A stretch of DNA of 64,000 nucleotides from Prorocentrum cordatum (taxonomy: Eukaryota; Sar; Dinophyceae; Prorocentrales; Prorocentraceae), in contig CAUYUJ010019282.1 of the NCBI GenBank assembly GCA_963575745.1, forward strand, positions 628,712 through 692,711, read 5' to 3'. Within the stretch, counting starts at the first letter, position 1. Every line of letters starts with the position of its first letter. The notes below the pieces were generated by a model. The model was not told the DNA's origin and did no database searches. It was given only the letters and a program-made list of their open reading frames with translations. Positions 13,421-39,180 of this stretch are shown piece by piece. The translations under genes were made by a program, and so were the position numbers.

Positions 13421-13498
<78 letters not shown>

Positions 13499-13507
13499 CA
13501 CCACCAC

Positions 13508-13539
<32 letters not shown>

Positions 13540-19699: not shown

Positions 19700-20884
19700 G
19701 GAGTCGCGAGCACACCAGCTAGTCCGTGTTCCTTGTGTCGCAGAGCTGGGGCTGTCGGGCGATGAGCTCCATCGCGGCAGCGTCCGACCCATCAATCTGA
19801 TCTTACGGCAGGGCGACCTGCACGACCCGCGAGAACTCGATGCCCCGAGGCGATGGGGTCGTCCGGTGGCACAGTCGACCCGAAAGCGGCCTTCCAGGCC
19901 AGGTGATGTCCCCTCGGCGAGCCTCCGTTCCCCACCTGGTGCGTCGGGACCCAGTGGTACGTGGCGGGGCCATGCCCGCCCCGAAAGGGAAGGCTCGTCG
20001 GCCGCGCAAGCTGGAGCCAGTCCCTGACATCCAAATGACGTAGCCCCAGCACGTAGCACGCGGTCGCGAGGGCCCGAAGGTCTCCAAGCCTGGCGGCGGC
20101 CCTGCCGTCGACCGCAGGGGGTGCGGCAGCGACAGCACCGTCGCCTCCGACGGCAGACGGGGCAGCAACCAGCGCGGCGGGCCCCGCGCGCCCTCCGCCC
20201 GCGGCGGGAGAGCTCGCCGCACCAGCAGCGGCTGCCGGGGCGGGGGCGGGGGCGGCAGCAGCGGCGCTGCCAGCGGCAGCAGGCGCATACGCGGCGATGC
20301 CACCTCCCATGGGAGCACCGCCTGCAGCCGCGGCGCGGGCAGGAAGGGCACGATGGCCTCCAGCACCACCAGGAGCAGGAGCGGCCGCAGCAGAGCCCGC
20401 ACCATTGTCGCGCACCGGCTCGGCCATCTTCGCGGCTCCGCGGGCGCAGGCCCGCGCCAGCTGGGCGACCGTCGACATCGCGGCGAAGTCAGCGTGCCGC
20501 AGTCCAGCTGGAGCGACGGCGCCCAACGGCGCAGCGGCGGGGCCCCCCTCCTTCCACCAGTTGCGGGTGCCGGCGCCCCCCGCATCGCACTCCTCGGCTT
20601 ACACGTCAAAGTCGGGCGCGAGGACAGCGCAGTGCTCCTGTCCGCGAAACGAGAACGCAACCACGACGCGCTTGTGAGCCAGGCGGGGCCCAGCGGCAGC
20701 CGGCAGGCCGCACCGCGCGGCCACCCCCGCCAAGGACGGCCGAGGCTCGCGGCCCGTCTCGCCCGAGGGGCAGGACGGGCAAGGCGAGGGGCAGACGCAC
20801 GCTGCCTCCCTCGCGCCGAGGGCGGTGGCCAGGCAATCAACCAGCGGCACCAGGAGCTCGGCGGCGTCACCCAGCGCCGGGAGC
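19700..20884 (-). pseudogene. N-terminal protein of the DIRS-like element, downstream piece
   Basis: The frame entering from the copia insertion reads PALGDAAELLVPLVDCLATALG and continues to a TAA-type break near 20599. A second frame gives an Ala/Pro-rich stretch (20526 to about 20100), then LATACYVLGLRHLDVRDWLQ. Further down, HEQFFFTGIHFARGLMAWL is readable near 19650. No domain is recognised; position suggests a Gag-like product. Several stops and shifts show decay. Confidence 0.4.
20880..20884 (+). repeat. Target-site duplication GGAGC (left)
   Basis: GGAGC immediately outside the left LTR equals the GGAGC immediately outside the right LTR. Five bases is the usual copia duplication length. 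Confidence 0.9.
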
Positions 20885-21081
20885 TGTGAATGGGGTTGAA
20901 GTACAAGGGCACAGAACCCCTGATCCGCTGGTAGAGGGAAGGAGGGATAGATGGATGTCTCCCCCTCCTGCACGATCAAAGGTCTGATCGATCTGCCCCA
21001 ATACCTGAGCCCAAACGGCCAGGCGCAGGAGAGGTGAGGATAAAGAGTATATATGAGGGTATCACACGGGTTCTTTTCACA
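20885..21081 (-). repeat. 3' LTR of the copia element
   Basis: 197 bp, TGTGAATGGGGTTG to TTCTTTTCACA on the plus strand. Differs from the other LTR at about eight positions, mostly C/T transitions. A TATA-like GAGTATATATGAGG lies about 50 bp inside one end. Confidence 0.9.
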
Positions 21082-21110
21082 CACCCCGTCCCGAATCCCG
21101 CCCGTGAGGG
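21082..21110 (-). promoter_or_regulatory. Polypurine tract candidate
   Basis: On the minus strand the bases just before the 3' LTR are GGGCGGGATTCGGGACGGGG, purine-rich and correctly placed to prime plus-strand DNA synthesis. Confidence 0.5.
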
Positions 21111-21812
21111 TAGGACTCGGGAACAGAGGAGAAGAATATGTCACCCTTTTACTCCTTTAATCCTCAAGTCTGTCAGGCAGCTGAGCGCAAAGTCTGTATA
21201 GCTTCAGCTGCAAAGTAAGGTAAGAAGAAACACCCAGGGTCCCGATTTCTTCGCCAAACACGCTTTGGTGCCCCCTCGGTGCGCCCCCCAAAACGCTTCG
21301 GCACTCAAAGGCGGAGAAGAATGGGACACGGGTGGGCGGAGAAAGAGGATCTGAGCCAGTTAAAGCAACATCAAAAGCTGCCGCGCTTAAGCGGGGCAGA
21401 TGTTGCCACCAGCTCTCTGTCGAGAGCTGGGCATCATATCATTCCCAACGCAATGTAAGCAAGGTCTAAAGAGTAAGCGAAAAAAATGTATTCTAGGTTC
21501 GTGCTGATGAACACGGTCGTGTTTAGAAACACGGCTAAAATCAAAGCAAATGTCTGGCCAGACGCAAAGTCGCGTTGATAAGCACGAAAAGTTGCACACA
21601 AATATATATATATATATAAATTCTGTATTCGACGACTCCCGTTGGCGTTGCTCCTTAGGAGACTGCCCTGGGCATCGCAAGGATATGTGTATGTGTGTGG
21701 CCACTTGTCTTGGATAGTGAAGTGGCCTAAAATGCTGTAATAGCCACCGCTCGAGGCGAACTTGTATAATGATGAAGTTCAAGCCTTTGAGCGGTGGGCC
21801 CGGCGGCCGACT
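21111..21812 (-). other. Probable 3' untranslated region of the copia element
   Basis: Between the tandem TAGTAG stop (21818-21813) and the polypurine tract. AT-richer than its surroundings, with a (TA)n run at 21602-21618. A 131-codon minus frame at 21782-21387 exists but is not protein-like. Confidence 0.5.
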
Positions 21813-23811
21813 CTACTACGCGTTGCCCCTCTCGTAGAACCTGCGGTCCCACATCCTGTGGCCATCGTACGACGCGTAGCTCGTCTTGAAGGTCTCCCAA
21901 GGCGTCCTCGGGATCCAGTGGCGGAACCACTCATTGTACTGGATGTCGCGGACGTAGACGAACTCGTCGCTGTTGTCCGTGATGTATATCCAGCATTTGA
22001 TGTAGGAACTCCAGCATCTGGGGCCCCACTGGCTGTCCTCCAGGTTGTCGCGCCACCACGTAGCGTAGTCCTCCGTCGTGCGCGCCCTCTTGGCGCGGGG
22101 AGGTGTCGCAGGCCTGCGGCCGTCGTCGCTGTCCTGCCGCTGCTCTGCAGTGCCGCGCGGCCCCGCGGGCATGTAGTCCTGCGCGCCTGAGGCGCTGGAC
22201 CCTGCAGCGCCGCCAGGAGCAGGGCGCGGCGGCGGCGGCGGGTGCCGCGGCATGCGTGGCTCCATGGCATCATCAGAGTGTTGGGAGTATGTATCAGGTT
22301 CGATCGGATCGGCTCTCGCCCCTGAATCAACCCCCCTCTGGTCAGTGGAACCCACGCCGGGTTCAACAGAAGCAAGCGCGGCAAGCTTGCGCTGCGTGAC
22401 TCTCTCACGGGTGCCATCCCCTCTGGGAAGGGCAATCGTGACAAGTCCGCGTGCCTGCCGCGTGCTTCGGTCGAGTCTGCCTGCGTTCAACCACCACTTC
22501 TTCCGACCAGCGTGGCCAGTCCTGATGCTGGTCTCGAGGATTTCACAGGCGTCGCGCATGTCCTCAATGGTATAGGCGTTCCTGCCTTGATCGACACGAG
22601 CTCCTGTCATTTGGTGGTGGAACTTTAAGTCACTGAGAAAGCGCTGAATGAGGTTGGCAAAGGGATGGTATAGAGGTCTGTCGTCCTCACGCTCGCCCAT
22701 CAATCTGCACATGTGCGCAGGAGGGGAGCCAGAGGCGACCCACTTCTCATACCTCTTCCTAGCGGAGTTCACCATTCTCCTCAGCACGTCTTTCTCATGT
22801 GCTGCAATGGAGCGCTTGCCCGTCATGATGACCTGCGCTCCGCCTCATGTACCTCGTGATGTCTTCCTGGGAGAGCGTCGTCTTGATCCAGTGGGTCAGC
22901 TTCTGGAGGCATGCCAGGTCGCTCTCGACAGCGGTACTTTTACCCGTAGCACCTACGGCAACAGTGCACTGCCAGCACATGTCACTCAGGGTACCTTCAT
23001 CTGTAACGATCCCTAAAGATAAGAGACGACCGCAATTCCGACATCGCGCGATATCATGCTGGATATCTTGTGGGGCTCCGTCGATCGCGAGGTGCTCACG
23101 AGATCCCCAGCGAGTGTCCCGACCACGAGCAAGACTGTGGCCGATCTGATCCGTGGCATCGCGGTTGATCTCGGCGGTCGGACGGGAAGCGATCGATCGG
23201 CTCATTCCCTCGATCTCGATCCTAGACAACCTTTCCCCTGGCAGTCCTACGCGCTCGGTCGTGTCGTTGTCCGCGTCGTCCGTATCACCATGGCATACGT
23301 TTTCTGTACGGATGCGGTTAGCCTCTTCCTGCAAGGCGGACTCGTTGTCACCCCCCTCGCGGTCGATTCCCTTCTGCTGGGCTATGATCCGTACCATGGT
23401 TTCCTGATCTGGGGCTGCGGATGCAACGCTGCCTGGATCCTGGGGAATGTCCTGCTCCGCGCCTGGGTCACGTGGCGCGGCAGGTGTTTCCACCAGCTCC
23501 GTCCATACGGGGAAGCCTGGGTTGCCGAATGTCTGGATACAATGTGTAAACATATCACGCAACGTCTTGAGTGCAAGATGTTTCTGGTGAATAGCATCTT
23601 CTGTGAAATCACGAAGTTCCGCAATACTGTCCAGCAGTATGATTTGATACACTCTAGAGATCCATTGGAAGACACCTGTAGTCGACTCCTCAATGACCTC
23701 GGGGTCCAGGTAGTGTACCAACTTTTTGAAGAAGCTATCTGCACTGCAAATCGGTAAGTCACGTGCCCATTTGTGGGTACGATTGTATTCCAAATAGTAT
23801 GTCTCTGCGTT
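21813..23811 (-). pseudogene. Copia 3' block, C-terminal portion with zinc ribbon
   Basis: It continues in frame after a TAG at 23814-23812 (FGSKT-stop-NAETYYLEYN) and has no early ATG of its own, so it is a continuation and not a separate gene. A zinc-ribbon-like C-x2-C-x18-C-x2-C lies at 23043-22966 (CRNCGRLL...MCWQC). A frame change near 22835 leads into a basic helical stretch (EKDVLRRMVNSARKRYEKW), a Pro-rich linker and a Trp/Tyr-rich C-terminus (YATWWRDNLEDSQWG) ending TAGTAG at 21818-21813. No family recognised. The ribbon could bind nucleic acid or protein. Confidence 0.55.
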
Positions 23812-25224
23812 CTAAGTTTTGGATCCAAATTGAATCTCAAATCGTAAGTACGACTGTGTTTTATCCACCACAATCTTGTCCGCGCCAGTGTGCACCTCAA
23901 TGATTTGTTTCACCTTTATCATAGGTGAGTCCACCAACAGCTCCGACGCCCAGCGGTATATGCGGTGGTCATATGATTGCTTGATCCACTTTGAGTCCTC
24001 CTCTGGGTCGTAGTCGGGGTGGTTGAGGAAGTCTTCTGGCGGGTCGATAATATTATCGAGGATGCTCGCGTCGACGTGCTCATCTGCTTGGATCTCTGCT
24101 GGTAAATATGCTCCCATGTTGTCATGTGCTGCTTTCTCCTCGGCAGTGAGTGGGATGTTTGATATATCCACGATGACGGTAACCAGAGGGTCAGCAGATT
24201 GCTCTGCCTTTTGTTGGGGCGCATCGCCTGCGGCAGCAGCATCATCGGCAGGTGTGGCCACCAGCTCCTCGGGATCGGGTGTCCGAGGAGCGGGCCGTCT
24301 GGTCGGCGTACGTGGGATACGTGGCTTGAAAATGCTCGGCATGCCAAGATATGGTAGATCACCAGAAGTTCTATGTTGCTGTATTTGCTCGCGGCATGAA
24401 GATGGGCCGTTCAGCGCAATATTCATATCCCTCGGGTCAATGTCGGCACGTACTGGCAAAGCGAAGATAACACCCTTGAGAGGCATGTTTCTGTCGTTGT
24501 ACCATATGTTTACCCATCGTAAACCGTAGTTGAGGATAGGTACTTGTACCGCAAAGAACTTGTCAAAGACACCGAAATGAATGATTGGGCCGTGTATGTG
24601 GCCCTTGTTCATGAGGACCTTGGCGTTGTGATTGCCCTTGGGGTAGTGATTGTCATAATGATAACAATTGGTAGACCCCCAATTCTTAGTGACAATGAAG
24701 TCTCCCATGCGAACATCATTAAATATAGGCCGACGATTCCAATCTTTCTGTGTATTTTTTGCTGCGATGGGTCGAAGAGCCTCTCGGCAGTATGACATAG
24801 CGACCAACCATTCTTTATCTTCTGTATTGTGCTCGCAATTGTCGATCAGAGCGCGGGCCATTTGTCCATCCAGAGCGTCGGCGTCAGATATGCGGCCAGC
24901 AGGGGCTGCCCCCAGCTGAGGGGCAATCGGTCGTTGAGCCGAAGGTGCTGATGCGGACGGCGTCCTTGGCTGCTGGTCCATGTCGTGATCCATGTCAGCT
25001 GGCGCAATCCCGGGAGGGTTATCGATGAACTCCTGCCCGGGCAGAACGGCACAAATTTCGCACTTGCTCAATGGTTGTCTCGCGGCCAATGGCGGATAGT
25101 CCCAGGCCGGGCCCTCCGGCCATATCTGCCGGCCGTGCTCGTGGCGTGGTTGTAAACGGCGAATTGCAATAACTGCCGATGCGGGAACCACGTCTTCTGT
25201 CATAATAGCGCCTTGGGCACCCAT
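23812..25224 (-). pseudogene. Copia 3' block, segment following the Tpt1 domain
   Basis: Begins right after a TAA at 25227-25225 that falls inside the Tpt1 domain; the first residues (MGAQGAIMTEDVVP) complete that domain. About 440 residues follow with no recognised family: a Pro/Ala linker, a folded-looking part (IIHFGVFDKFFAVQVPILNYGLRW), another linker and an acidic C-terminal part ending FEIQFGSKT. The ATG next to the stop is a coincidence of the domain sequence and is not taken as a true start. Confidence 0.55.
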
Positions 25225-25992
25225 TTAAAATCTGCAACCAGCTTTTGTGGCAATCTCCATGTTGATTACCAACTCCACCTCGTTGTTGTAGCGATTGAAC
25301 TTGTATGATTGCACCGAGGTGTGGGGATTCTTCTGAACATTGTCTATGTATGTGCTGGAACTGAAGAATGCCTCCGCGCGTGGTGATGGTTTATGATACC
25401 TATCTGTCTGAGAAGATGGATCGATATAGCCAGGAACGGTTCCTGGCTTAAGAATGTTGCGCCAAGCACGGAATGTCGTGCCGTGGTGGAGGTATTTCAC
25501 GTCTGTCCATTGTAGGCTCTCCCAGCCCATGTTCCACGGTTTGGAAAGTGGATTGACGCAACTGTGGCCTCCAACACATCGAATGGCAATAACGCTGTTC
25601 CAATCGAAACAACTGGGGTCGCCTCCTTCGGGGATTGGTTTGGCGTATATCTCGATCCGATTCTTCTGCGGGTCAATATGTTTCTGGAACGCACGAATGA
25701 TGAAGATCGGGTAGTAATCATTCCAATCGGGATACCCATCATTTTCACCATCCTTTTTGAAATGCGTCATGGCCGCATCGGTGGATGGTCCGTTGTGGTT
25801 TCTACGACCACTAAATTTCCATTGGGCCATATCCTGAAAAGAGCTCCACTTACTTGGGATCTTCCACTCACGATCCGTTGTCTTCGGCCATATGTTGATA
25901 CGTCGATCGTGAAATTGATTGATGTGGAACTTCTTGTAGTGGATCTCGTGGCGTAACATCGTCGTGATGCCTTTGCTCATGTACTTAGGGTC
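25150..25992 (-). CDS. Tpt1/KptA-like RNA 2'-phosphotransferase domain inside the copia element
   Basis: Tpt1/KptA enzymes remove an RNA 2'-phosphate using NAD+ in tRNA splicing or RNA repair. All landmarks appear in order on the minus strand: SKGITTMLRHEIH (family SKxLSxLLRH; Arg-His pair at codons 25953-25948); KNRIEIYA (family DKxRFxL); AIRCVGGHS (family IRAxQGHS, Arg at 25581); YLHHGTT (family LYHGT); FNRYNNEVELVINMEI (family GxRxxxxVLIxID, fourth catalytic Arg at 25293); GCRF-stop-MGAQGAIMTEDVVP (family FYxSxNGVxLTxGxVPP). All four Arg-His-Arg-Arg residues are present. A TAA at 25227-25225 interrupts the last motif, and an insertion of about 80 residues lies between the first two. The domain is embedded in a larger frame. 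The substrate is unknown. Confidence 0.72.
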
Positions 25993-27129
25993 TCCGAGCC
26001 ACTCGTCAAGTAGTTCTGGACCAAAACGTGTCTCGTCGTAATGTGGTAGCGATATAAATTTCCATTCTGGAAAACAACCCGATTGTGCAATATCGGGAGC
26101 ATGAGCAATCACACAATCGTCGTGTTGCAATTGATCGAACCATTCCTCATCCTGCAGGCAAGCAAATCCATTGGTCGCGGACGTACCGCGCAAAACAGGA
26201 GAGACGTACGGATGGTCACCCACGATGCCTGCTTGAAGCTTGTACTCTCGAATAGTGCATGCGTTGTCGAACGTCCCGATCCGGCTGGTGTCCTCGCACA
26301 TGGAACGCTCGCAGCTGTCCTGCCACGACAATAAGTTCACTGTGTGTGGAGAAGGGTCGTCGTCGGCAGGAGTCGCCTCCAGCTCCATCGCATCTAAGTC
26401 AGTGCCGTCGTCGGGGATCGGGACTGTCTCGGCTTTCGGGAGCTGTTCTGCTAGCGGTTGGTCTGCTGGCGTGCGGTTTGGGAGCGGGCCAGGCGTCGAT
26501 GGCTCTGGCACGGCTATCGGTTGCGGGCCAGGCTGGAGTGGCTCAGGCAGTGGGCCTGGTGGTGCTGGCTGGTCCGCTTCAACCGCCGCGCGCCATACGG
26601 CAGTCGGAACATCAGGATCGTGTCCCAATGCCACTCGATCCAATGCATTCTGTCTGAAGAATGTTTTGCATGCTTCGACGGTCTGTTGGTTCTCGGCAGC
26701 AGAGCCTGCACGGTGAGCGTTCAACCTGTTGCCTTCTGCAATGAGTCGTGATTTGGTCGCCTCATCATCTCCGTCCAAATCGGTAATCTGCTGTAGAAAC
26801 TGCTCAAACACAACCCAATTAACAGCATGCGCATCTTCAACTGTTTTTATGATCTTGGGGTGGAGGAGCTCTTGTTTCTCGACTGAATCCCAGGATGCCC
26901 ATGCCCCAGGGCAGTCGTTGATTAGCTGCAAGAGGTAACTGAATAATTCATCATATGCAGGACCAAATGGATCGTCCTGAGGAATAGCCTTGTTCGGCTC
27001 GCGAGGATCAAGTGCTGGTGGCTGTGTCGGGATTCCAGGAATAGGTATGCCTGGGTCACCTGCGGTAGCAGGCAGTGATGCCGGCAGCGTGCCATCGGCA
27101 CATGATGACATCCAAGCGCAATGGGCCAT
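25225..27129 (-). pseudogene. Copia 3' block, segment containing most of the Tpt1 domain
   Basis: 634 codons from the ATG at 27129 to the TAA at 25227-25225. Residues 1-60 are Pro/Ala-rich, 60-180 helical (LLQLINDCPGAWASWDS), and 180-260 a Pro/Glu linker. Then comes a lead-in (DHPYVSPVLRGTSATNGFACL; LPHYDETRFGPELLDEWLG), and the Tpt1 region from about residue 380 to the end. Upstream in the same frame, codons between 27225 and 27130 (EIMEALDFRERITNEWK) join it to the preceding segment except for one TAG near 27153, so the ATG need not be the true start. Confidence 0.55.
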
Positions 27130-27225
27130 CTCGCCTGCTATCTATGTCATCAGCGTTGTGAGGCTGAGATTTCTTTTCCATTCATTTGTGATCCTCTCTC
27201 TGAAATCAAGAGCCTCCATGATTTC

Positions 27226-28335
27226 TTAGGCCCGTCTGTAGGCCTGCTCGTCCGTGACGGGAGTCATGATAGGAGGTCTGAATGGATACGGCTGAGAAGG
27301 CAGTGACTGGATCAAAACACAGAAATTAGGATAGCATGCGGCGTCACAGAACTGTGTCGTAAACATCGCCATGTTGTGGTTGTTCTGTTTTGCGTGCCAA
27401 GCCTCAGGCGTAATTCTATCGTACGCTTCTACCCAGTGGTCTGATGGAAGAACTGTAAGACCACGGTTTTGCATCGTCTTGACCAAATCGTCCGCGTGGT
27501 AATCGAAGTTCGGATGCACGCCCCATTGTGCTGCTTTGCCTGGCCCCATAACCGTAGGGCAACGGAAGTACTGCATCACATCAATAAAGCGTGATACATC
27601 CACTTGTACGTGCAATGGCATGAGCGTCGGGACGCCACCTTCGCATTCCATCTTCTGGAGCTCGCACACGGAAGTAGGTGCTCGATCCTCGTGGCGACGC
27701 ATGTCCACGGTATTCTGTCCGTGGCTGGCACACGCGATGTCGTTCGCACTCCATACCACCATGGCATTGAGGCCTCTGCGGCAGTGCCTTTGTTTCACGT
27801 ATGCAGGGAAATCATTTGCCCAGTATTCCCAGATGACCTCGTTTAATTCACGCCTCTTTTTGATTGAGGCATTGTCGCTGTATACCATCAGGCCTCTGGC
27901 CTCGCGGATCATTTTGATCACGTTGCGCTGCTCAAGGGTGGACTCGAACTGGTTGTTGAGAATAGCTGTGGTACGGCTCTCCTGTGTCTGCGTACGCTGT
28001 TCACGGAGATGTGCCATATCACAGCTGGTGTCTCCACCAGCCTCTGGCAATTGAATGCAATCTTGGCCAATCGGCGTGTCGTTCTGTTTGAACCAGTCTT
28101 TGTAATTGCCAAAGGAGAATGCCCACATCATGATGTCGTCGCGGATGATGGTCGACAAATGCTCGAGGGTAGCGCCACCCATGCATTCCGCGCTATTGAG
28201 GCACGGCAGAAATAACGGTACAAGAGCAACGTTTGATAGTTTGGCGAGATGGTCTCGCTTTCGTGGACTGTTGAGCTCGTCAATGCCGTGACTTGGGTAC
28301 TTATTGTGCTTGGCGGCCTTGGATCCTTTCTTGGG
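27226..28335 (-). pseudogene. Copia 3' block, second segment
   Basis: Same frame as the preceding segment, continuing after a TAG at 28338-28336 (STWIM-stop-PKKGSKAAKHNK) and ending at a TAA at 27228-27226 (YRRA-stop-EIMEALDF). Readable sequence includes RDHLAKLSNVALVPLFLP, a helical stretch (LEQRNVIKMIREARG) and a His/Cys-containing C-terminal part (AKQNNHNMAMFTTQFCDAACY). No family recognised. Confidence 0.5.
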
Positions 28336-29604
28336 CTACATAATCCATGTTGAATCGGTGTACAAATTTGTCCATTTGTATGCGTGCCCTGATGGACCGA
28401 AGGCATGATGCAAGAGAAGTCCCAGGTCTTCCTGTACGAGTGAGTACCACCCGTTGTCTGAAAGAAGAGTAGAAGCCAGCCGACCACCACAAAGCGCGCT
28501 GTACTTTGCTTGTTCAAGTTCGAGTGGGTCAAAATCAGGACCAGGAGTAAGACCAGGGTCAACCTCAGTGGGGGCCTCGCCAATGAATACAGAGCCCTCG
28601 TCGTATGGTTGCCAACGATAAGTACTCGTCATAGTTTCGTCGTACTCTGGTAGTGCCTGCCAGCCGTCTGGGTGATCGGATGGTGTTGCCACCGTCTTGG
28701 AGTATGATCCGGTACCTCCAAAGCCTCCGCGTGCAGTCAGCCATGCACTGAACTTGCGGCGGAATTTGCTTGTCTGGTTAATGTCGGAAAATGCCATCAT
28801 TTCGGTGACAAGATTATCTTCGACAACGTGGCCGACGTGTCCCGCAGTATCTGATGTCCTGGCTAAGCCAGGTGGGCGTGTGGGTAACTTGATCTTTCCA
28901 CGATCCAGTTTAGGAGCATAGCTTGGAGTGGTAATTCCATTGCTGTATACATCAGAACGTGCACAAATACCACTGTTATAATAATATTTTGTATCCTGAA
29001 CGCTGTCCTCGGCATATTGTCCCAGTACTGCGCTGCCAATGTTGGACCAATCGTTGTAAATCATAATCCACTCCGTCTTCAATATCACCGTCGTGAGGTC
29101 CATTGGCGGACACCTGCGGTGTCCTGGGATCACTGCGTTCAACTGATCATGTAAGCCACGAACACTTTCTTGTACAGACGAGTTACGAGTGAAGGGGCTG
29201 GAGAACATGCACATGGCCCTCATGAAAGACAGCCATGGTGTAGCCGTAATCGTGCTGTACTCGTAGTTGGCGTCGCCGCCGACTGTTCCACCAGTTTCGC
29301 CGATCCAACTCTTGGCGTCAGCGGACGCAGAGCGGGCAACTTCTCGAATAGAGGATTCGTCGGGTACGCGGAGATCAAAATCTGCACTGCGATCAGCGCG
29401 CCGTTGATGTATGCATAGGTATCCATCATCAGGATCACGAGGACGACCAGTTTGAGCGTGGTATGTGAAGCCCGCGCGGTCGTCGTCCTTGGCGTTCGGG
29501 TCGTACTCGGCGTCGCAGCCGATGGGCCAGCCGACGATGTGGAGCGGCTGCGCCTGATCCATCTCGGGGATGGGGGCATCGGGATTAGAACCGATCTCAC
29601 TCAT
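28336..29604 (-). pseudogene. Copia 3' block, first segment
   Basis: Start taken at the ATG at 29604 (MSEIGSNPDAPIPEMDQ), which opens the first protein-like stretch after the RNase H stop at 29871-29869. The frame is open for about 422 codons to a TAG. It contains an acidic N-terminus, PWLSFMRAMCMFSSPF, WIMIYNDWSNIGSAVLGQY and RKFSAWLTARGGFGGTG. No recognised domain. The upstream 87 codons after the RNase H stop are also open but Arg/Pro-rich, so translation could be by readthrough or by a separate start. Confidence 0.5.
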
Positions 29605-29868
29605 TTGCGCCTCGCACGCGGCGAACAGGATGCTTGTAAGCGTTGTAGATCGAGTCGTAAAATTGCTGCGGCATGAACGCACAATGAAAGTCCTAGACCT
29701 CTCTGTGTCCTGTGGAGGTGAGGGAGGATGGCGGGGTTGTCTACCGTGCGGGGAACGTGCTCTCGAACGACGTGTGCGCGAACCAGTAGCTGCAGCGGGT
29801 GCACCAATGTGGTACATACATGCGCATATGCCCTCGTGATTGGCTCGCCCAACGCACTGCATTCCACA

Positions 29869-31050
29869 TTATGATCCTACCTCGCCCCATCTTTCTTTCT
29901 CTGTGAGTAAGATGTTGCATACTTCCGGACATCCATCCAGTTTTGGTGGTTCAGCAACATGAGGTAAACCATCGGGCCTCCGAGGCCCTTTCAGTGGTTG
30001 CCATGGTTTCTTTGGAGGACATTGTATCGGAGTAACGGGAAAGATGAGCGAGTGTTCCAAGAGGTCCCTCCAGAGGTCTGCTTTATTTGGCTCAAAATGT
30101 TTGGTCATCATATCTGCAATCTGCTCTTTTGTACCTACATTCTTGAGCTCAATATGTTCGAGTTGGCATGTCTTACATATCCAATCCAGGTTGATACGAT
30201 GAGTACGATGAAGATGACGAAGTGCTGGTGTACGTCCCTTTTGGACAATTTTGATCACGGCCGGGGTATCCTCGAGGACGGTAAGACGCACTTTGGGAGA
30301 GCTGATCTCCTGAGCAGGTTCTGGATCCACGTGCAATACGGTACCCTCATGGGATATCGTGCGCCTCTTTGGAGGCGTAGGTAACTCCGTCTTTAGCGGT
30401 AGTTGCCTACGGCTAGGAGAAGATCCCCTTGTGGGGGGCGCCTTGCGAGGCGATGGCTTGCGCCTCTTCTTTTTGGCGGCCAAAGTCGGACACGTCGCCG
30501 TGTCGGCGCGTCCCAGGCAGCCCAGGCAAGTATTCTTCTCTTTGCATGTGTTGGCAACTCCCACCACGGTTTCCCAGAATGAGAGTAGTGGTAGTCCTTC
30601 CAGTCGTAGTGCTGAGTCAAGAGCAACGATCTCGGATTCTGTAGATGAGTGCGATACAACCGTTTGTTTCTTACACACAGCGTTGACCGGGAAGAACGCA
30701 TTGTCCAACAAGCGCGGCGAAGACGCCGGTAGTGGCCTTGGATGATGTAATGCAATCGGCGAACGAGGCGTCAGTGAAGAGCATGATGGATAATTTGTCT
30801 GACGAATCGCCTATCCATCCATGTAAACAATGTGTACGCGTCGTTTTGATGTAGCATATCCATCGATGTAGACGTTTATCACACGTGGTATTCCATTTGG
30901 TAATTTCTCTGGCTAGCATACATACTGGATGTAAAAGATCGAAACGACAGCAACGTGCCAGGTATATAATCTTCATCAGTACACTCGCCGCGTCCTGGCC
31001 AAGGATGCCCTCGTCGGAGTAATCGGAATCGGCGAAGGAGGTGTCCTCGA
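29869..31050 (-). pseudogene. Copia RNase H domain
   Basis: Two frames supply the domain. MKIIYLARCCRFDLLHPV leads to the first catalytic Asp in LFTDASFADCITSSKATTG (Asp at 30772). After a frame change come VSHSSTESEIVALDSALR (catalytic Glu), EDTPAVIKIVQKGRT with the next acidic residue, and IELKNVGTKEQIADMMTKHF, the classic copia ending. It removes template RNA during reverse transcription. An SR/Pro-rich insert (about 31260-31010) lies between RT and RNase H, which is unusual. The domain ends at TAA 29871-29869. Confidence 0.8.
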
Positions 31051-31439
31051 TGCCAGGGGTCTCGGCGTCAGGTAGGTCATCGTATGTGACTGGTATGGAT
31101 TCTGTTGTAGTAGATGGTGTATCGACCGATCTTGCTGGGCTGGATGATCGCGGCCGTGCGTTGAGCACGCTAGTAGGTCTGGCGACCGACCCGGAGGGGA
31201 CAGGCGATTTGGATCGCGAAGTCCTCGGCGAGTCGGACCGTTTCCGACGTGACCCTGGTCCCTGGGCGCGCTTGGAAGCGCATTCCAGGTACCGCTCAAT
31301 GCACTGATCAGTAAAGCCAAGCATGTCATGTCGAATTCCACGAATTTGTTTGGCTGCATGGTAATCTTTCTCACTGTGCACGGGCAACATATGTCGCATG
31401 GTAGACATTATTTGTCGAAGATGTTCTGCGGTACATCGT

Positions 31440-32138
31440 ATGCCTATTGTCCACAGCCAAGATATTGTGAGTATGGAGTAGGTGGCTCCAAGTCAGTACC
31501 GCTTTTGCGGATATAATCCCAGCCAACTTGTAGATTGTTAGCTGGTCCGGCTAATTTGAAGTCGTCCACATATACAGAAAGTATCAGTCCCAGTTGTGTC
31601 TCCATACGCATTCCCATCCTGGAATAGGCCCGAAACCACCACTTTCCAAGCATGTGCGACACTTTCGTTCCCAAAAGACACCTGCAAGAGGGTGTCCGTA
31701 TAGTGCCAATCGTAGTCGGCACACTGGATTCTTGCATTTTGACCAGGATGCCGGTTGTCGCCATTTGGGCATGGTAATCCAAGTATCAACTGGATCGATT
31801 CGTCCGTCGCCGTATAATAATGCCTGCGTGTAGGCTCCAGGTGCATCACTTTGTTCGCCCGCATATTGTGGCACTAATGCAATAGCGTCGCAAAGTTTGG
31901 AAGCCTCAATATGCGAAGCACTGGAAGCGGCGTCGGCGAATATGGCGGCCAAACCAGTTTCATCTTTGCCTGTGTTGCCCTGAACCACCACTCGGCCCTT
32001 GAATTTACGTAGACCGGGCGGAAGTTCCTCGTGTTTGGCTGAAGATAGATCCAAGATATTGAAGAAATGAACTTTCGTCCCAGTGCGAATAGCTTGTGAC
32101 TCTATATCAGCTTTTCTGCAACGGTCTCCAACATCCAT
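31440..32138 (-). pseudogene. Copia reverse transcriptase domain
   Basis: Motifs in order: GLRKFKGRVVVQGN (copia KxRLVxxG-type strand), SDAPGAYTQALL (motif A region, Asp present), WSKCKNPVCRLRLALYGHPLAG (copia L-x-x-LYGLkQ equivalent), then after a frame change SVYVDDFKLAG with the YVDD active site at 31572-31561. A missing A in a short A-run near 32108 separates it from the preceding linker frame (VAEK joined to ADIESQAI). Copies the element RNA into DNA in the particle. Confidence 0.8.
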
Positions 32139-33510
32139 GTTTGTTTCTTCTCAAGTCGCTCGTATTCTTTTCGTGGGGCTTCCTGTGCACGTGGTTCTGC
32201 GGCAACTTCTTTCTTACTCAGATTTCTGGCAACTAGGGCCGGGCGCGCCCGCGAGGAATCGGGAATGTTATCACTGTGTGCCGGTGTATATGTCGTCTCA
32301 CGTGGAGTAGTGGGTATTGCTACCGACTGGGTGAACTGGCGCATGAGCGGGTTCATGGTCCCAAAGTCGGTTCCCTCACTATCCACAAAGACCAGAGCAC
32401 GTTCGTCTCCAGCATGCTGTTGTGGGGTTTGACGGTAGTACAGTACCGTAGTAATGTCACGTGGCCCACCAGGTATTTTGGCACACAGGGTCTCTTTGTT
32501 CGTCACGCCCTTGACGTTTTCGTCGCGGATGACCGCGCCGTTGTCGGTGTCGTACGTAATCCTTCGTTCCACAGCATTCCATGTGGGTCCGCCAGCTGTA
32601 GTGGTACGGAAATTGTTGGCCTGTTTGTCCTGTCTTGTCCACACTCGAAGTGCAGCTCGGTCGCGAATCTCACGAGCTCGCTTAACATCTTCGGCGCACT
32701 CGATTTCTTTCTTTTGTTGTCCACGAGATAAGGTTTTCCAACGCTCGGGAAGAATGTGATCAGGACGCGTAGTAGTCTGTGCACGTGTCTCGCGGCCACG
32801 GACCACCATTTTGCCATCTGGCGTTATTTTTGGAAGCTCATAGAATCGAACCAAGCCTGTCCATGGCTCGCTCAGTTCCCTGTAGTCGTTGGCGCTGACA
32901 CCGTCCCAAACATCGCGAAAGGCACTTTCTCCTTCAAAGGTAGAAGTTGTCTCGAAATCTCGTGTCACGTCGAGCTGATCAACAGGTACAGGTATGTTCA
33001 TGACGTCATTCGTCGGTATGATCAATTTCTTGCGTGGAGTACGTATATGTCTGATGACGCAATATCCGCGCTGTCCCCAGTAGTCGGGCTCCGGCGCTGG
33101 TGCAGCAACTTCAGAGGCCGATGCGTGGATATCAGCGATGTTGTCTTCCATTGTCATCATAGACGGATCATCCCATGCTTTAGGGTAGGAAAGTGGAGGA
33201 TCGGGCATTGGTTTGTCGCCCAAGGGGCGGGAGGTAGATGCCTTGACCTCGTCGTGTGCCTCAGGGTTGTGGTGTCGCAGAGTACCTTCTTGCACTGGGT
33301 AGGTGAACTTGCCATCTGGGATGATGATGTCTTTGACTCTGTGCGCGTGACACAGTTCCCCATCGGGCTTCTTGGCGTATGTAGCCGTGTCCAAGACAAG
33401 ATAATCGCCTGGCCATCGTCCACCAGAGTGTAAATGGTAACCCATGAATAACCCTTCCCGAGTGTTTTCTTTGAACTTTGCAGTCTCGTTATTAATCTCG
33501 GGGTCGAGGC
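32102..33510 (-). pseudogene. Copia integrase C-terminal region and linker to RT
   Basis: Starts with ETAKFKENTREGLFMGYHL, the copia integrase C-terminal signature (K...TxxGxFxGYxxxSGG), followed by WPGDYLVLDTATY. A long variable linker follows (about 33200-32150) with ITPDGKMVVRGRETRAQ and SRGQQKKEIECAEDVKR. The linker is of the usual kind between copia integrase and RT and has no separate function that I can recognise. Confidence 0.7.
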
Positions 33511-34134
33511 ATCGCAGTGCCCGGGAAAACTTTCTCCAAAGCGCATTTCATGAGCTGTCTTGTCGACGTGCTCCTCGCTCAGGGCAGCAGCGCCCGCGGA
33601 TGGATGCACAAAATTATGTCCACAGCAAAAGGCTTGCATGGCCTCTTTCCACCATTCATGTCCCAGACCAAACATATGCAACACAGCTCTCGTACCGAGA
33701 ATGACAATCTTGACAATGCGCTCGATCAATCCATCCGTTTGCGGACGATGCGGCGTACCAGTGTCATGTCTCCATCCCAGCTGGCGGCAAGCCTTCTGAA
33801 GCTCTCCAGAATTGTCTGTGTAGATATGCTTCACCTCATCGTTCGCGGCGATGAACTGTTGAAAGGATGCCTTTGTGGTAGCTGCGTCTTTGTGTAGTGC
33901 TGGGTAAGCCATGAAGATGCCGGTGTATCTATCCAGGACGACAAGTGCATACTTGTCGCCGTGCTTGTCGGCGGCATCGTCTTTGGCCAAGACGATATGG
34001 TCGGCAGTTAAAGCTTCCCCAAACTCCTTCGGGACAAAAGCCTCGTAGGCTGTGTCCTCGTCAGTGGGTCTGACAGTGGATGTGGTTTGCGCTGTCGGCG
34101 ACACGGAGCATTCTGCGCCATCGTGCGAGAACAA
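33510..34134 (-). pseudogene. Copia integrase catalytic core
   Basis: The DDE core is complete: LTADHIVLAKDD (first Asp at 34002), HIYTDNSGELQKACR (second Asp), and TPHRPQTDGLIERIV (Glu at 33723, in the retroviral N/T-D-G-x-x-E context). LVVLDRYTGIFMAYPAL is the expected strand between the first two. A frame change near 34090 separates it from the preceding zinc-binding GAG-pre-integrase and another near 33500 from its C-terminal domain. It inserts element DNA into the host genome with 5-bp staggered cuts, matching the 5-bp duplications seen here. Confidence 0.82.
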
Positions 34135-34990
34135 ATCTCACAGTCTGGGTGTTTTGGCCTGCGGGTCATATAATGCATAGGGTCAATCGGTTTCTTCTGT
34201 CTATTTGGAAGAACGCGATCATTGTTGTGGTGCACTAGTGTGAGCGTCTCCGTCGGTATGTCGGTATCTGCATGAACTATATCTGCTAGACCCCCGCATG
34301 CTGGAGGAGAACACTGCGTCTGAGACATAAGCGAGTCGGTGGGTGTGTCCACGTTAGGCTCGGCAATGTTTGTGTCGGGAGGTTCTTCGACCGTAACGGC
34401 CCGTGCTCCTCCTCCCTCGCCGACATGTGGTCTCTTGGGGCAGGTCCCTATGTGGGGCCGCAGCTTATCTGCAGTCGTTGACTGCTCTGTAGTTTTGCAG
34501 CACCAACATATGTCGTTGCAGCGGGCGGATGAACGCTTGCGCTGACGACGTCGGGGTGCTGACGAAGTGCATAGACGTGGTGGCGGTATCAGTATCAGGT
34601 CGTCGAGTCGTAATTCTGGAACTCTATTGTTGACTGGAATCTTATACCATTGGCCCCCCGGATCCTGAAGCAAGTAGCCCAGCTCGGGATCCCAAAGCTG
34701 CCGAAAGCCATCAACCTCAATCAATTTGCCAACTGATAGTAATGATGGACAGTCTGGCAAGGCAAGGGCTGAACTATGTAAGCCAACCTCGGGTAGCCGT
34801 ATGTCGTAGTGCTCGTTGACAGTACGATCACCATTGGCAGTTTCCAGAATACGCTCTTCGCGAATAGATATGCGATCCGATTCGGTCTGCGTCAGTTCGT
34901 GTTTACCCTGAATATGATGCGCAGAACCACTGTCGAGAACCCAAGATCGTGTCAATGCAGCAGTCGAGCGTGGTGGGTCGACTGGCATGG
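34100..34990 (-). pseudogene. Copia aspartic protease and GAG-pre-integrase
   Basis: The protease has SWVLDSGSAHHI with catalytic Asp at 34934 in the copia W-x-x-DSG(A/S)-x-x-H context, followed by ILETANGDRTVNEHYDIRLP and CPSLLSVGKLIEVDGFR. Both are typical of copia proteases, which act as dimers to process the polyprotein. About 200 residues later, RPKHPDCEICSRTMAQ (H-x2-C-x2-C at about 34151-34131) is the GAG-pre-integrase zinc-binding end. The frame then shifts into the integrase frame. Confidence 0.78.
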
Positions 34991-36530
34991 TCGTTGTCTT
35001 CGTCTGGGCTGTCTTTGATGACTGCTTGACAGCGTCGTCGTATTCTCGGATCGCAGTTGGTGTGACCACCGACTCCTTGTTGTGTCGGTAGTCGTATAGA
35101 TCTTTGTACCACAGCTGTGCCTCTGTTCGACATTCTCGTAGAGCGTCTGCACCCTGATCCCACCATCGTTGTGGTAGCGGGTCTGGTACATTGACAATGC
35201 CACCCTCGTTCGGCATCTCCTTCCACTTGTCCAATCTGGCCCTGCCAGGTACTGCGTGTAGGTTGTAATCCACGTTACGTGTGTCGAAGCGTATCCGACG
35301 GCGTGGTTTGGTAGATGTCGTAGCGACCTTAGTGTTGGCCATGAGGGTCTTGTCACGAATGACGTAACTGCGGTCGGAACGGCGTGAACGTCGATAGTTG
35401 GCTGGAGAACGTGCTCTGGCGTGGGGAGGACCACGGGACGAACCACGGCTCGTGGAACGTCTGCCACGTCCTCTGTCACTACCGTATGACCTATCACGGC
35501 CGCGTGGGCTGCCACGTCCGCCGCCACGGTTGTCTCGTCCTCGGGAGGTAGATCTCGAAGATCTGTCGCAATGACTTCTCGACTGACTGCGAGAGTCTGG
35601 GGGCCTCCTGGAGGATGAACGAGATCGGTCGTAGCGGCGTCGGTTGTCGCGTCCATGGCGCGAGTCGCTTGTGCAGCGGAACCCCCCGCGTTGTGAAGAA
35701 CGTTGGCTTCCTGATCCGCGGGATGGTGGTCGGCCACGACTATCCTGACTGGAGGTCCGTGGTCGGCTCGGGCTTCGCCCGGGAGTCTTCGCACCAGGTG
35801 TAAGATGAGCGTATTTGCATTTGTCGCCCTTGGCAAGCACTTGTTCTGTGCGAAGTCTTTACACTGTGCAACGTGTGGGAAGGTGCACTTGTCGCCTCTG
35901 TTGCATGTGTTGCGCTTGGCGAAATCGAAGCAAAATGGTTTCGATGATGGCTTCGTGTGATTCGCAGGGGTTGACGCGCTGCGGCGGGAGTTGCCACCAG
36001 CGGTCGATGATCTGGACGATCTGTTGTTCTTCCAATCCCTGGAATAGGTATACAAAGCCTTGCATCGTTCACCATTGCGACAGTTGCCTTTCTTCCAGGC
36101 AGCGCACACATTGACTTCAGAATGTGTCTCATGTTGGTACCGTAACTTAGTTTGACGATTCTCCAATTGTTTGAGCTCCAATACGTCCAGGACGCGCTGT
36201 CGGAACCAATCATAGGTACGATTCGGGTCGCTGATCTTCATGCGCTGGTACTCGTACATGTCTTGTTTCATCCAGGCATGTCTCCGAATCTGTGCACGAA
36301 ACAAAGATTCCAAGATCTTTGGGTCGGGTGCTTCTCGGCACTCCAATAGTAAAGCGCCCCAGTCAGTAATGAAACGTTGCAAATCTTCATCTCTCATCCT
36401 CAGTTCTTTAAGGCGCTTAAAGTCGTGCAGGTCGTCATCAACCTCTGTCACTGTGTAGGACTGTATGATGTGCCAGTAGATCTGGCGTCCTCTGAGCATG
36501 CGTCCTGCTTTGTGCTCTGGTTTCGGTGAG
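34990..36530 (-). pseudogene. Copia Gag: capsid-like region, CCCH zinc fingers and RS-rich tail
   Basis: A helical capsid-like segment (GRQIYWHIIQSYTV; ITDWGALLLECREAPD) precedes three Cys-rich repeats. The first is degenerate (C-x7-C-x5-C, 36106-36062). The second is a full C-x8-C-x5-C-x3-H (35932-35873). The third is split by a one-base frame change at about 35838 (CKDFAQNKC then KGDKCKYAH). A tail of about 120 residues rich in Arg-Ser, Arg-Gly and Arg-Asp follows (35790-35400). CCCH fingers plus RS repeats resemble RNA-processing proteins; copia Gag normally has a CCHC knuckle instead. Expected role: packaging of element RNA. Confidence 0.65.
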
Positions 36531-38581
36531 CCTGATTTGGTAGCGCAAGTCTGAGGATAAGATGTCGCTCAGAGCGGTCGCGACTTTGCAATCGATGCTC
36601 TCAAAGTCTCCACTGTCTTGTAAGTCCTCGAAGGTACACCCGGGCTGTTCAGCCACGCATAGGAAGGCATATGCTTTGGGTGGTCGCCCTGAGGCGGCGC
36701 CAAAGTCCTTCCGTACCTTTTGCTGCCACTCGAGCAGCTGCGTGATTTTAGGCAAGACAGGGACTCGGACGGTGTCTGACTCCTTGATAGGAGTAGTAGT
36801 ATGGACCGAAGCCGCAGACAATGGTTGTGAGGGTATCAGTACACCGTCAGTAATCGGTTCTGTGCGCACAGGAGACACATGGCGTGTCTGAGCTGAAGCT
36901 GCCACGGAGGCTGCGCCTGGTGACGTACGTCGTTGATGTCCTGCAGAAGCTTGTGGTGCTTCGGCGGACGCTGCCGCCTGCCTGTGCAGGTCGGTTGCAG
37001 GTCGAAGGTGAAGACTGGTGTCGTTTGTGTGGTCGACCAGCTGATTTGTCCAGCTCGTCCTGTCTTCCTGTATCTGTGCCACCTTTTGGCGTGTGTACTC
37101 ATCAGTATCCCGAGAACGTTGTGAGTACCGATCAAGTCGTTGCTCGTAGGCTCGGAGACGGGCGCCGTGCGCCTCCAGCTCGCTTTCCAGACGTGCGAGG
37201 CGCCCCTCAACACGTACTTTCTCAGTATCTCTCTCACGAATAACCTGGGAGAGCTCCAACTGCGTGTGGTCAGCCGCCTTCTCAACCTCCTGCAACCTGT
37301 CAGTGAGGCGGGCGAAATCGTAAACCGTGGGAGGAGAATCCAGCTGGCCAGTCTGGGCTCGTCCGACACGCAACTCTGCCAGGGCGTCCTGTACGCCAGG
37401 AAAACGCCGCTCGATTTCAGAGATCCTGTTAGCGAGTGGCTGCACGACAGCGTTGGTCGCATCAAGCCTTTGAGTGATGACTCTCTCAGTACGCTGCAAC
37501 ATGTCGATCAGGTTCGACGAGTTGGCGTGTGCTTCGTTGCGAAGCGTCGCCGTAGTGTGGTCTATGTGGGATCGAAGATCATTGATCTGAGACTGAACGT
37601 CGCCAAGGTCGGTGGCCTCGGCTGGTGGTGGTCGGTTGCGGAGCTGGTCGTGGATCTCATCGTGGAGGATCCTGACTGCTGAAACGCCTGTGTCGCGTAC
37701 GAGCACAAGCTGTTGCTCCATCTGCGCTAGGTAGTTGCGCAGATTCTCGACCATCGCCGTTCGTTCACCTGAGTATGACACCTCACGATCAGCCTGGCAC
37801 TGCAGTTCACCTATGATGCGTCGATCTTCGGCAATCCTGGAATCGATGATCCCTAAGGCGCCGTCAAGATCTTGGCGCATGGCTGCAGTATTGGCAGCGT
37901 TCGTCTGAACGCTCTGCAGTAGTCCAGAGTATTGCCTGGACACGAAGTTTTCATACTGGTCTCTGAGCTCAGCTATTTCACCTGCGGCGGACGCTTCCGC
38001 CAGCTGGTCGTCTGAGATGGAGAGGTGGGGAGCATAGGCTTCCCTCTGCCCCCTCTCGCGAGGAGTGCTTGGCCTCTGAGAGGCAGTACGCGGGCTCGAC
38101 CTACTCTCGCCGCATGGGCCTGGGGCCCCACGACGGTTGCGCGCGGACGAGCTGCGACTAGGACCGTGTGTGTGTGTGGTGTCTCATCCGATGATACCTT
38201 GGGGTACTGCGTCTGCGGCTGCGCCGCCACTGGTCTACTGAGTTCCTCGAGGGTGGCGCCGTGCTCCGCAACAGGAACGGTCGCAGGGCTGGGGGTACCA
38301 GCACCTGAGGTCCATCGGCGGTTAGCGCGAAAGCGCCCTGGAGTATCAGGACCAGTGAGGCTTTCGCCTGACGCAGTTGGGATTGCTCCCGACTGAGGAG
38401 GAGATGGAGGATCGAAGGTAGGCGTGTGAAACTCCTTCCTGCCTGTTCCTACTCCTTCTCCTGTCCCCCCGCGGGCGGCGCTGCGGTGAAGTTCAGCAGC
38501 TAGCCGCGCCTCGGGTCCGTCGGAGCTGGGGGGGGGCACCTGGGACACCAACACAGTCCACACTAAGGCTCTCCAACTCAT
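36530..38581 (-). pseudogene. Copia Gag N-terminal region with coiled coil
   Basis: Start taken at the ATG at 38581 (MSWRALVWTVLVSQ); the frame could open earlier, inside the LTR. The first ~130 residues are Pro/Ser-rich. At about 38165, in a GTGTGTGTGT tract, the frame changes, after which a long heptad-rich helix follows (AELRDQYENFVSRQYSGLLQ; RDLDGALGIIDSRIAEDRR; RLEEVEKAADHTQLE-type repeats to about 37050). A linker and a helical domain (LEWQQKVRKDFGAASG) complete it before another frame change at about 36530. A coiled-coil N-terminus suits particle assembly. Confidence 0.6.
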
Positions 38582-38707
38582 CACCGAACCGTCGCGCCGT
38601 CGGAGAGCTCGGACGCGAGGCCCCGATGGACCCCTTACGGCGCATGCGCCGCTTGGGTTCCATCGAGGCCGCGTGCGAGATCGCGACGCGGGGTTCGATG
38701 AACGGTG

Positions 38708-38730: not shown

Positions 38731-38927
38731 TGTGAATGGGGTTGAAGTACAAGGGCACAGAACCCCTGATCCGTTGGTAGAGGGAAGGAGGGATAGATGG
38801 ATGTCTTTCCCTCCTGCACGATCAAAGGTCTGATCGATATGTCCCAATACCTGAGCCCAAACGGCCAGGCGCAGGAGAGGTGAGGATAAGGAGTATATAT
38901 GAGGGTATTACACGGGTTCTATTCACA
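38731..38927 (-). repeat. 5' LTR of the copia element
   Basis: 197 bp, TGTGAATGGGGTTG to TTCTATTCACA; the first and last 7 bases are perfect inverted repeats. Contains GAGTATATATGAGG about 35 bp from the outer end. Confidence 0.9.
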
Positions 38928-39180
38928 GGAGCGGGCCCGCCTTGAGCAGCGGGAAGAGCGCGGCCGCCGACGCGGCCGCCGCGGGCGCGCCTGGGATCGC
39001 GGGCTCGGAGGGCGGCAGCCACCAGCGAGCCAGGAGCAGCAGGATATCGCGGCTAGCGAGCGGGAGGCCGATCCTGGAACCAGTGAAGCGCATCCGGGCG
39101 GAGGCCTCGCCTTCCAGCAAAAGACTTGAACCGGCGACGCGGTCGCGGCGAAGTGCGTGATCACGACGGCCTTCAGTTCC
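38928..39180 (-). pseudogene. DIRS-like element, upstream piece beyond the copia insertion
   Basis: Starts with GGAGC, the second target duplication (38928-38932). The minus frame reads RMRFTGSRIGLPLASRDI, LLLLARWWLPPSEP and ALFPLLKAGPL, and runs without shift into PALGDAAELLVPL at 20879 once the copia element and one GGAGC are removed. It is therefore the interrupted 5' part of the element at 15620-20884. Beyond 39190 it dissolves into (CAT)n. Confidence 0.65.

What the first reader, a model, noticed from the sequence alone, without database searches (positions are those of the whole stretch)
25150..25992. A copia retrotransposon encodes a Tpt1/KptA-type RNA 2'-phosphotransferase
Seen: SKGITTMLRHEIH, KNRIEIYA, AIRCVGGHS, YLHHGTT, FNRYNNEVELVINMEI and QGAIMTEDVVP in family order, with the Arg-His-Arg-Arg tetrad intact. 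Known: Tpt1/KptA removes an internal 2'-phosphate from RNA left by plant/fungal-type tRNA ligation. Inference: the element may repair ligated or nicked RNA (its own genome, or a cleaved tRNA primer), or counter a host RNA-cutting or 2'-phosphate defence. I know of no LTR retrotransposon described with this cargo.
Basis: partly seen in the sequence, partly recalled or inferred. Interest (0 to 1): 0.88.

Follow-up and report, generated by a model that had tools for sequence, protein, structure and literature searches.

The report
Algal LTR retrotransposon carrying Tpt1 enzyme
A very large jumping gene, in what looks like a dinoflagellate genome, carries an RNA-mending enzyme domain related to Tpt1 that is kept in working order in many other copies, which is an unexpected cargo for such an element.

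Summary
Confirmed and extended. Window 25110-25998 (-) encodes a divergent Tpt1/KptA (PF01885) domain: Pfam E 3.6e-6, 27.6 bits (cut-off 26) with its one in-frame TAA read through. It lies in an 18.0-kb LTR element (20885-38927; 197-bp LTRs 96% alike, TSD GGAGC), copia-type by a near-cut-off integrase upstream of a weak RVT_2 match. The stop is copy-specific: 131 further scored copies, 82-92% alike; 96 of all 132 without a stop in the domain. In 53 of 58 testable cases the domain sits 3.7-3.9 kb behind the ORF I read as RNase H. A second copia family (~16 kb, no detectable pol or domain similarity to the first) carries a clear Tpt1 domain (E 3e-24) on the gag side, beside a RING finger. Both domains show purifying selection (dN/dS 0.24, 0.17) and keep the published catalytic tetrad, whose fourth Arg is not the FNRYNN one. 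AlphaFold models were too poor to test the fold. Function is inferred: NAD+-dependent removal of 2'-phosphates from, or ADP-ribosylation of, RNA during retrotransposition.

The parts
20880..20884 (.). Target-site duplication, left copy (GGAGC)
   Evidence: GGAGC directly outside both LTR ends
20885..21081 (-). 3' LTR (197 bp)
   Evidence: 190 of 198 positions identical to the other LTR (the alignment includes one flanking base)
22797..29868 (-). Long 3' extension in the same minus frame as the ORF before it; stops at 29871, 28338, 27228, 27144, 25227, 23814, ending at TGA 22797; apart from PTS_2-RNA only sub-threshold Pfam matches (DZR E 0.18, CHORD E 0.12)
25110..25998 (-). Tpt1/KptA-like (PTS_2-RNA) domain; Pfam match at about 25195-25590
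   Evidence: E 3.6e-6, 27.6 bits with TAA read as Q
25225..25227 (-). In-frame TAA that breaks the domain in this copy
   Evidence: in 30 loci compared, 10 have a stop in the domain, all at different positions
25948..25953 (-). Tetrad Arg16-His17 (LRH)
   Evidence: 29 of 29 copies compared; mapping by alignment
25657..25659 (-). Tetrad Arg114 (KNR; CthTpt1 Arg68)
   Evidence: 28 of 29 copies
25477..25485 (-). HGT motif (NAD contact in CthTpt1)
   Evidence: HGT in 26 of 29 copies; role from PMC6333775 passages
25378..25380 (-). Probable tetrad Arg207 (SPRAEAFFSS; CthTpt1 Arg121)
   Evidence: 28 of 29 copies; alignments
29869..30810 (-). ORF read as copia-type RNase H from recalled motifs
   Evidence: no Pfam family at E<=1 and no BLASTP similarity to the pol ORF of the second family; linkage to the Tpt1 domain
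31584..32150 (-). Reverse transcriptase piece (RVT_2, weak)
   Evidence: E 0.0032, 17.5 bits, below cut-off 31.6
33157..34137 (-). Integrase core (rve), match at about 33742-33969
   Evidence: E 1.2e-7, 32.3 bits (cut-off 32.6)
36438..38183 (-). 581-aa open frame in gag position; not tested against Pfam
   Evidence: position only
38731..38927 (-). 5' LTR (197 bp)
38928..38932 (.). Target-site duplication, right copy (GGAGC)

Best explanation
The window holds a decayed copy of a large copia-type LTR retrotransposon whose Pol reading frame is extended at its 3' end by several kb that include a Tpt1/KptA-type RNA 2'-phosphotransferase domain. Better-kept relatives encode this domain behind Pol (this family) or in the gag-side polyprotein (second family), so it is probably packed into the retrotransposon particle. 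Most likely it is an active NAD+-dependent enzyme on RNA: it takes 2'-phosphates off element RNA (or off the tRNA primer), left when host nucleases cut the RNA and a host ligase of the fungal/plant type reseals it, so that reverse transcription can read through. Shown: the element, the domain, its linkage in many copies, catalytic residues, purifying selection. Inferred: packing, catalysis, substrate, and the block to reverse transcription.
For: Element: LTRs and TSD, rve and RVT_2. Domain: Pfam E 3.6e-6; 17 of 22 members of a family alignment match PTS_2-RNA and no other family at E<=0.01, best E 1.1e-7 (5 of the 22 were short fragments); hhalign to canonical Tpt1s E 4e-6, probability 87%, NAD lobe only. 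Linkage: 53 of 58 RNase H-ORF hits on a contig with a scored domain have it 3678-3905 nt downstream on the same strand; in one (C16263) the two matches are in phase and both reported in a 2849-aa open frame. Second family: E 6.1e-23 and 3.4e-24 over profile 4-177; 14 of 18 RT hits with the domain 8060-8091 nt upstream. Selection: dN/dS 0.237 (404 of 406 pairs) and 0.168 (288 of 325 pairs); wrong-frame controls 1.76 and 1.04. Tetrad 29, 29, 28, 28 of 29 and 26, 26, 26, 25 of 26.
Against: The window copy itself is broken. In its family the RNA lobe is supported by motif only, and a profile search of PDB sequences found nothing at E<=1; stop-free member L054 scores 23.3 bits, under the Pfam cut-off. 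Arg139 (NAD arch in CthTpt1) is not Arg in 26 of 29 copies of this family and is Asp or Gly in 26 of 26 of the second, so the chemistry may be altered. No fungal/plant-type ligase was shown in the genome: PF09511 found nothing, but its 14 control genomes gave nothing either. No expression data. Pfam found no integrase in the second family's pol stretches. The copies compared were among the best-scoring, which favours conserved residues.
Confidence: 0.45

Rival explanations
1. The domain is an RNA ADP-ribosyltransferase rather than a 2'-phosphate remover: it caps or marks phosphorylated RNA ends of the element, or host RNA, to block exonucleases or a host defence.
For: Human TRPT1 is said to ADP-ribosylate RNA in vitro (PMC9458441, search listing and start of abstract; for KptA recalled). 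Both element families lack Arg at the CthTpt1 Arg139 position in most or all copies compared, so the balance of the two reaction steps may differ.
Against: The tetrad residues, which contact the junction phosphates in CthTpt1, are kept in nearly all copies compared.
Confidence: 0.27
2. The domain no longer catalyses and serves as an RNA-binding or structural module of the polyprotein.
For: The window family is very divergent, with an insert in the RNA lobe and Arg139 lost in most copies.
Against: The catalytic positions are invariant or nearly so in both families.
Confidence: 0.15
3. The window domain is another ADP-ribosyltransferase-like or unrelated fold, not Tpt1.
For: Weak scores for single members; no PDB sequence match; unusable AlphaFold models; no profile similarity between the domains of the two element families (hhalign E 0.053, probability 1%).
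Against: PTS_2-RNA is the only Pfam family among members at E<=0.01; the motif order SK-LRH, KNR, IRxxGGHS, HGT, R...FFS, ELVI, AIMTEDVVP follows the family.
Confidence: 0.08
4. Chance capture: a piece of a host Tpt1 gene hitch-hikes in the element without function.
For: Host-gene pieces inside LTR elements are known (recalled).
Against: 131 other scored copies, dN/dS well below 1 with wrong-frame controls, and a second family with the same kind of domain.
Confidence: 0.03

Closest known systems
Tpt1/KptA/TRPT1 family (PF01885), e.g. CthTpt1 6e3a, tRNA 2'-phosphotransferase 1 chains 7yw2/7yw3
   Same: Motif order, tetrad, HGT motif; the second family also matches over the whole profile and hits 7yw3 by sequence (E 1.3e-8)
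   Different: Fused inside LTR-retrotransposon polyproteins; extra inserts; Arg139 position changed; known members are stand-alone proteins as far as recalled
Ty1/copia LTR retrotransposons
   Same: LTRs, 5-bp TSD, integrase upstream of an RVT_2 match in the window element; RVT_2 above cut-off in the second family
   Different: 16-18 kb long, with several kb of extra coding sequence including a Tpt1 domain
DNMT-carrying retrotransposons: LINE and DIRS of Symbiodinium, Gypsy of a charophyte (PMC5890265, passages)
   Same: Algal retrotransposons that took up a nucleic-acid modifying enzyme; Ka/Ks below 0.2 reported there for the Gypsy case
   Different: Other enzyme, other element classes; the paper says Symbiodinium Copia lacks any DNMT domain
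AlkB (m6A RNA demethylase) Gypsy elements of Phalaenopsis orchids (PMC9289625, abstract and section 12)
   Same: Giant LTR element with an RNA-repair type enzyme as cargo
   Different: Gypsy, plant, other chemistry; that screen of 121 angiosperm genomes found its 15 unusual domains all in Gypsy-type, not Copia-type, elements
Burro giant Gypsy elements of planarians (PMC6431247, passages)
   Same: Giant polyproteins with extra domains, some linked to ubiquitination, as the RING finger of the second family suggests here
   Different: Gypsy; the words phosphotransferase and copia do not occur in the main text

Membership tests
Tpt1/KptA (PF01885) | Significant profile match | tested here: met
   27.6 bits against cut-off 26 with the stop read through; below cut-off for the truncated ORF (16 bits) and for stop-free member L054 (23.3 bits, E 7.5e-5); second family 82.2 and 86.3 bits
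Tpt1/KptA (PF01885) | Arg-His-Arg-Arg tetrad and HGT motif | tested here: met
   the fourth Arg of the window family rests on alignment
Tpt1/KptA (PF01885) | Two lobes: winged-helix RNA lobe and ART-like NAD lobe | tested here: inconclusive
   AlphaFold2 mean pLDDT 42.1 (whole domain) and 45.7 (NAD lobe); Foldseek not run
Tpt1/KptA (PF01885) | NAD+-dependent 2'-phosphate removal from RNA | not testable with these tools
   Needs an enzyme assay
Ty1/copia LTR retrotransposon | LTR pair with target-site duplication | tested here: met
   second family: LTR pair in 3 of 5 fetched copies, 5-bp duplication seen in 2
Ty1/copia LTR retrotransposon | Integrase upstream of an RVT_2-type RT and RNase H | tested here: inconclusive
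   Window: order rve (32.3 bits, cut-off 32.6) then RVT_2 (17.5 bits, cut-off 31.6) in a decayed pol; RNase H by recalled motif, no Pfam match. Second family: RVT_2 above cut-off, no integrase found. BLASTP finds no similarity between the two families' pol pieces
Ty1/copia LTR retrotransposon | tRNA primer-binding site behind the 5' LTR | tested here: inconclusive
   Second family has TGGTAGCGGAGCTGG, like a tRNA 3' end (recalled); the window element has GGTTACATCAGCCC, no tRNA identified

The most novel reading that the evidence does not exclude
Two copia-type lineages of one dinoflagellate each took up a Tpt1 RNA-repair enzyme, one behind Pol and one on the gag side, because their RNA passes through a cut-and-religated state that leaves 2'-phosphates (host attack on the RNA, or a cleaved and resealed tRNA primer) which must be removed before reverse transcription: retrotransposons that carry their own RNA end-repair step.
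Probability: 0.3. Interest if true: 0.9.

Novelty: new variant of a known kind. Interest (0 to 1): 0.78.

Why it matters
I saw no description of a Tpt1/KptA domain in a retrotransposon. The basis is limited: open-access full-text searches with Tpt1-type words and with dinoflagellate, copia or cargo words, of which only capped listings were seen; a few listed papers hold both kinds of word and were not opened (e.g. PMC3549820, PMC4053983, PMC11313146, PMC4901365). What Tpt1 does in organisms without a fungal-type ligase is not obvious (PMC6333775, passages). Selfish elements that keep the domain under selection in two lineages point to a real RNA 2'-phosphate or RNA ADP-ribosylation event that matters for reverse transcription or host defence, and give a concrete system in which to test it.

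Tried and rejected
Searches that gave nothing: protein search with the window domain region (209 candidates, none at E<=0.01) and with a segment of the second family (808 candidates, none at E<=1e-3); IMG/VR; phage tblastn; PDB phmmer with the read-through ORF; PDB profile search with the window family. An 11-sequence alignment found 18 proteins: by my reading 10 fragments of the window type and 7 of the second type, all 17 labelled Pyramimonas sp. in EukProt, and 1 KptA-like protein of unnamed origin (P0006). The label may hide contamination and I draw no host range from it.

Ribozyme/circular-RNA model (as in retrozymes, PMC4918200, passages): no ribozyme family was found in the window element (one match, SNORD46, far below its threshold, on the other strand) or in five loci of the second family (five matches, all below threshold).

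Host ligase pathway: PF09511 search empty with an empty control, no conclusion; RtcB (PF01139) did not complete.

Tree of 15 domains: both element types sit on long branches, origin unresolved. BLASTP of window pol pieces against the second family's pol ORF: no similarity.

Stop read as recoded sense codon: stops fall at different positions in 10 of 30 loci, so decay is the better reading. AlphaFold models too poor to use.

Full report
Observation. The truncated 638-aa ORF gives PTS_2-RNA at E 0.013, under the cut-off; with the stop read as a residue the domain passes it, E 3.6e-6, 27.6 bits, profile 73-176. No other Pfam family appears there up to E 10. PHROGs agrees weakly (E 0.0092); NCBIfam is silent on the domain.

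Element. LTRs of 197 bp (20885-21081 and 38731-38927, 96% alike) with TGTGAA...TTCACA ends and a GGAGC duplication on both sides bound an 18.0-kb insertion on the minus strand. Inside are an integrase core (E 1.2e-7, 32.3 bits against a cut-off of 32.6), a weak RVT_2 piece (E 0.0032) and an ORF (29869-30810) that I read as copia RNase H from recalled motifs, Pfam having found no family in it. The open frames of pol shift several times. From 30810 to 22797 one minus frame is kept over 8 kb with six stops before its end. The Tpt1 domain is in that extension.

Genome. The window lies in a 4.128-Gb assembly of 21,875 contigs; the size fits Prorocentrum cordatum (about 4.15 Gb in PMC10449503, passages), an inference only. 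The window domain gave 132 scored matches of 1591 candidates, itself included; the 131 others are 82-92% identical, and by hand count 96 of 132 have no stop in the domain. The RNase H ORF gave 127 scored matches of 9740 candidates. Of these, 58 lie on a contig with a scored Tpt1 match: 53 have it 3678-3905 nt downstream on the same strand, 1 at 5091 nt, and 4 are not so placed (two far away, one in the opposite order, one on the other strand). In contig C16263 the two matches are in phase (4707 nt apart) and both are reported in a 2849-aa open frame without stops in the matches. So the domain belongs to the element and, in at least that copy, appears continuous with the ORF before it.

Second family. 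The PF01885 search of the genome scored 150 of 2877 candidates, all over the cut-off; its control rang in 3 of 14 named genomes. Seven look like stand-alone genes on inspection (L002-L008; L004 has a TAG). I take the other 143 for a second type from score and extent; 26 of them were read (25 without a stop in the domain plus 20 residues on either side), and by hand count 6 of 143 contain a stop in the match. Of five copies fetched at length, three show an LTR pair (252-320 bp, 97.8-99.0% alike, elements of about 16.0 kb) and two do not within the stretch fetched; two have a clear 5-bp duplication. ORF1 (2926-2940 aa) carries a zinc knuckle (E 0.001-0.002, slightly below cut-off), the full Tpt1 domain (E 6.1e-23 and 3.4e-24) and a RING finger (E 1.7e-8); the pol part carries RVT_2 (E 6.9e-10 to 2.5e-8); no integrase was found. 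An in-frame TGA with identical surroundings divides ORF1 and ORF2 in 4 of 5 copies (in the fifth the junction was not found). 20 of 71 scored pol matches (13,440 candidates) lie in an open frame of 2163-2169 aa, one of them with a stop inside, which suggests stop read-through as in gag-pol. Of 18 pol matches on a contig with a scored Tpt1 match, 14 have it 8060-8091 nt upstream on the same strand and 4 do not. The two families are not detectably alike in the domain (hhalign probability 1%) or in the pol pieces compared (BLASTP) and have the domain at opposite sides of pol, so I read them as separate captures or very old divergence; the tree cannot decide.

Selection and catalytic residues. Window family: 29 of 30 loci of equal domain length (L071 dropped), dN/dS 0.237 over 404 of 406 pairs; RH 29/29, KNR 28/29, HGT 26/29, Arg of the SPRTEA position 28/29; Arg of FNRYNN 3/29. 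Control on 28 loci (two of other length dropped): 0.243 in frame, 1.76 and 1.04 out of frame; differences from the majority by codon position 177, 185, 529. Second family: 26 copies, 0.168 over 288 of 325 pairs; tetrad 26, 26, 26 and 25 of 26; Arg139 position Asp 23, Gly 3. The copies came from the best-scoring matches, a bias towards conservation. The tetrad definition is from PMC6333775 (passages).

How sure is membership. The second family is Tpt1 by sequence: Pfam, PDB chains named tRNA 2'-phosphotransferase 1 (7yw3, E 1.3e-8) and hhalign (E 1.8e-17). The window family is a divergent member: NAD lobe by Pfam (17 of 22 alignment members at E<=0.01, best 1.1e-7) and hhalign (E 4e-6, 87%), RNA lobe by motif alone, PDB profile search empty, fold untested because both models were poor.

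Mechanism. Placement in polyproteins suggests packing into the particle (inference). Tpt1 moves the 2'-phosphate of RNA to NAD+ (PMC6333775). In yeast a 2'-phosphate left on ligated HAC1 RNA inhibits Xrn1 and alters the RNA's fate (PMC6456296, passages); that it blocks a copia reverse transcriptase is my inference. The simplest use is clean-up of cut and religated element RNA or primer. RNA ADP-ribosylation as a cap or counter-defence is the main rival. Known ribozyme families that would create such ends in cis were not found.

Novelty. Retrotransposons with captured DNA- or RNA-modifying enzymes are known, and giant LTR elements with ubiquitin-linked domains too. A Tpt1 domain in a retrotransposon was not seen in the searches named under Why it matters, whose listings were capped. 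I file it as a new variant of a known kind.

Noticed in passing
window 53603-59590 (-): 1995-aa open frame with Helitron_like_N (E 1.8e-13): a Helitron-type remnant; its downstream end lies near a stretch of N at about 53.5 kb.
   Followed up: partly
window 38690-38730 (-): Behind the 5' LTR the element has GGTTACATCAGCCCTGTAAAGC instead of a TGG... site; it holds a 5-bp inverted repeat and I could match it to no tRNA. The primer of this family is open.
   Followed up: partly
L006, L007, L008: A divergent stand-alone Tpt1-like ORF (316 aa in L006 and L007) occurs in three near-identical places of the genome, perhaps also amplified.
   Followed up: no
L010, L011-L012, L013-L014, L015-L017: In-frame TGA with identical context between ORF1 and ORF2 of the second family in 4 copies: candidate stop read-through signal.
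   Followed up: partly
L013 (residues 2269-2323 of the translation of 1289-10000, -): RING finger in the same polyprotein as the Tpt1 domain in the second family (E 1.7e-8): possible ubiquitin ligase carried by the element.
   Followed up: no
P0003-P0005, P0007-P0020: 17 EukProt fragments of both families are labelled Pyramimonas sp.; contamination or real presence in a green alga.
   Followed up: no
window 13150-13800 and 39150-39700: Long trinucleotide arrays (CAT/CAG-like), seen in the translations and, for the second, as a repeat family.
   Followed up: no
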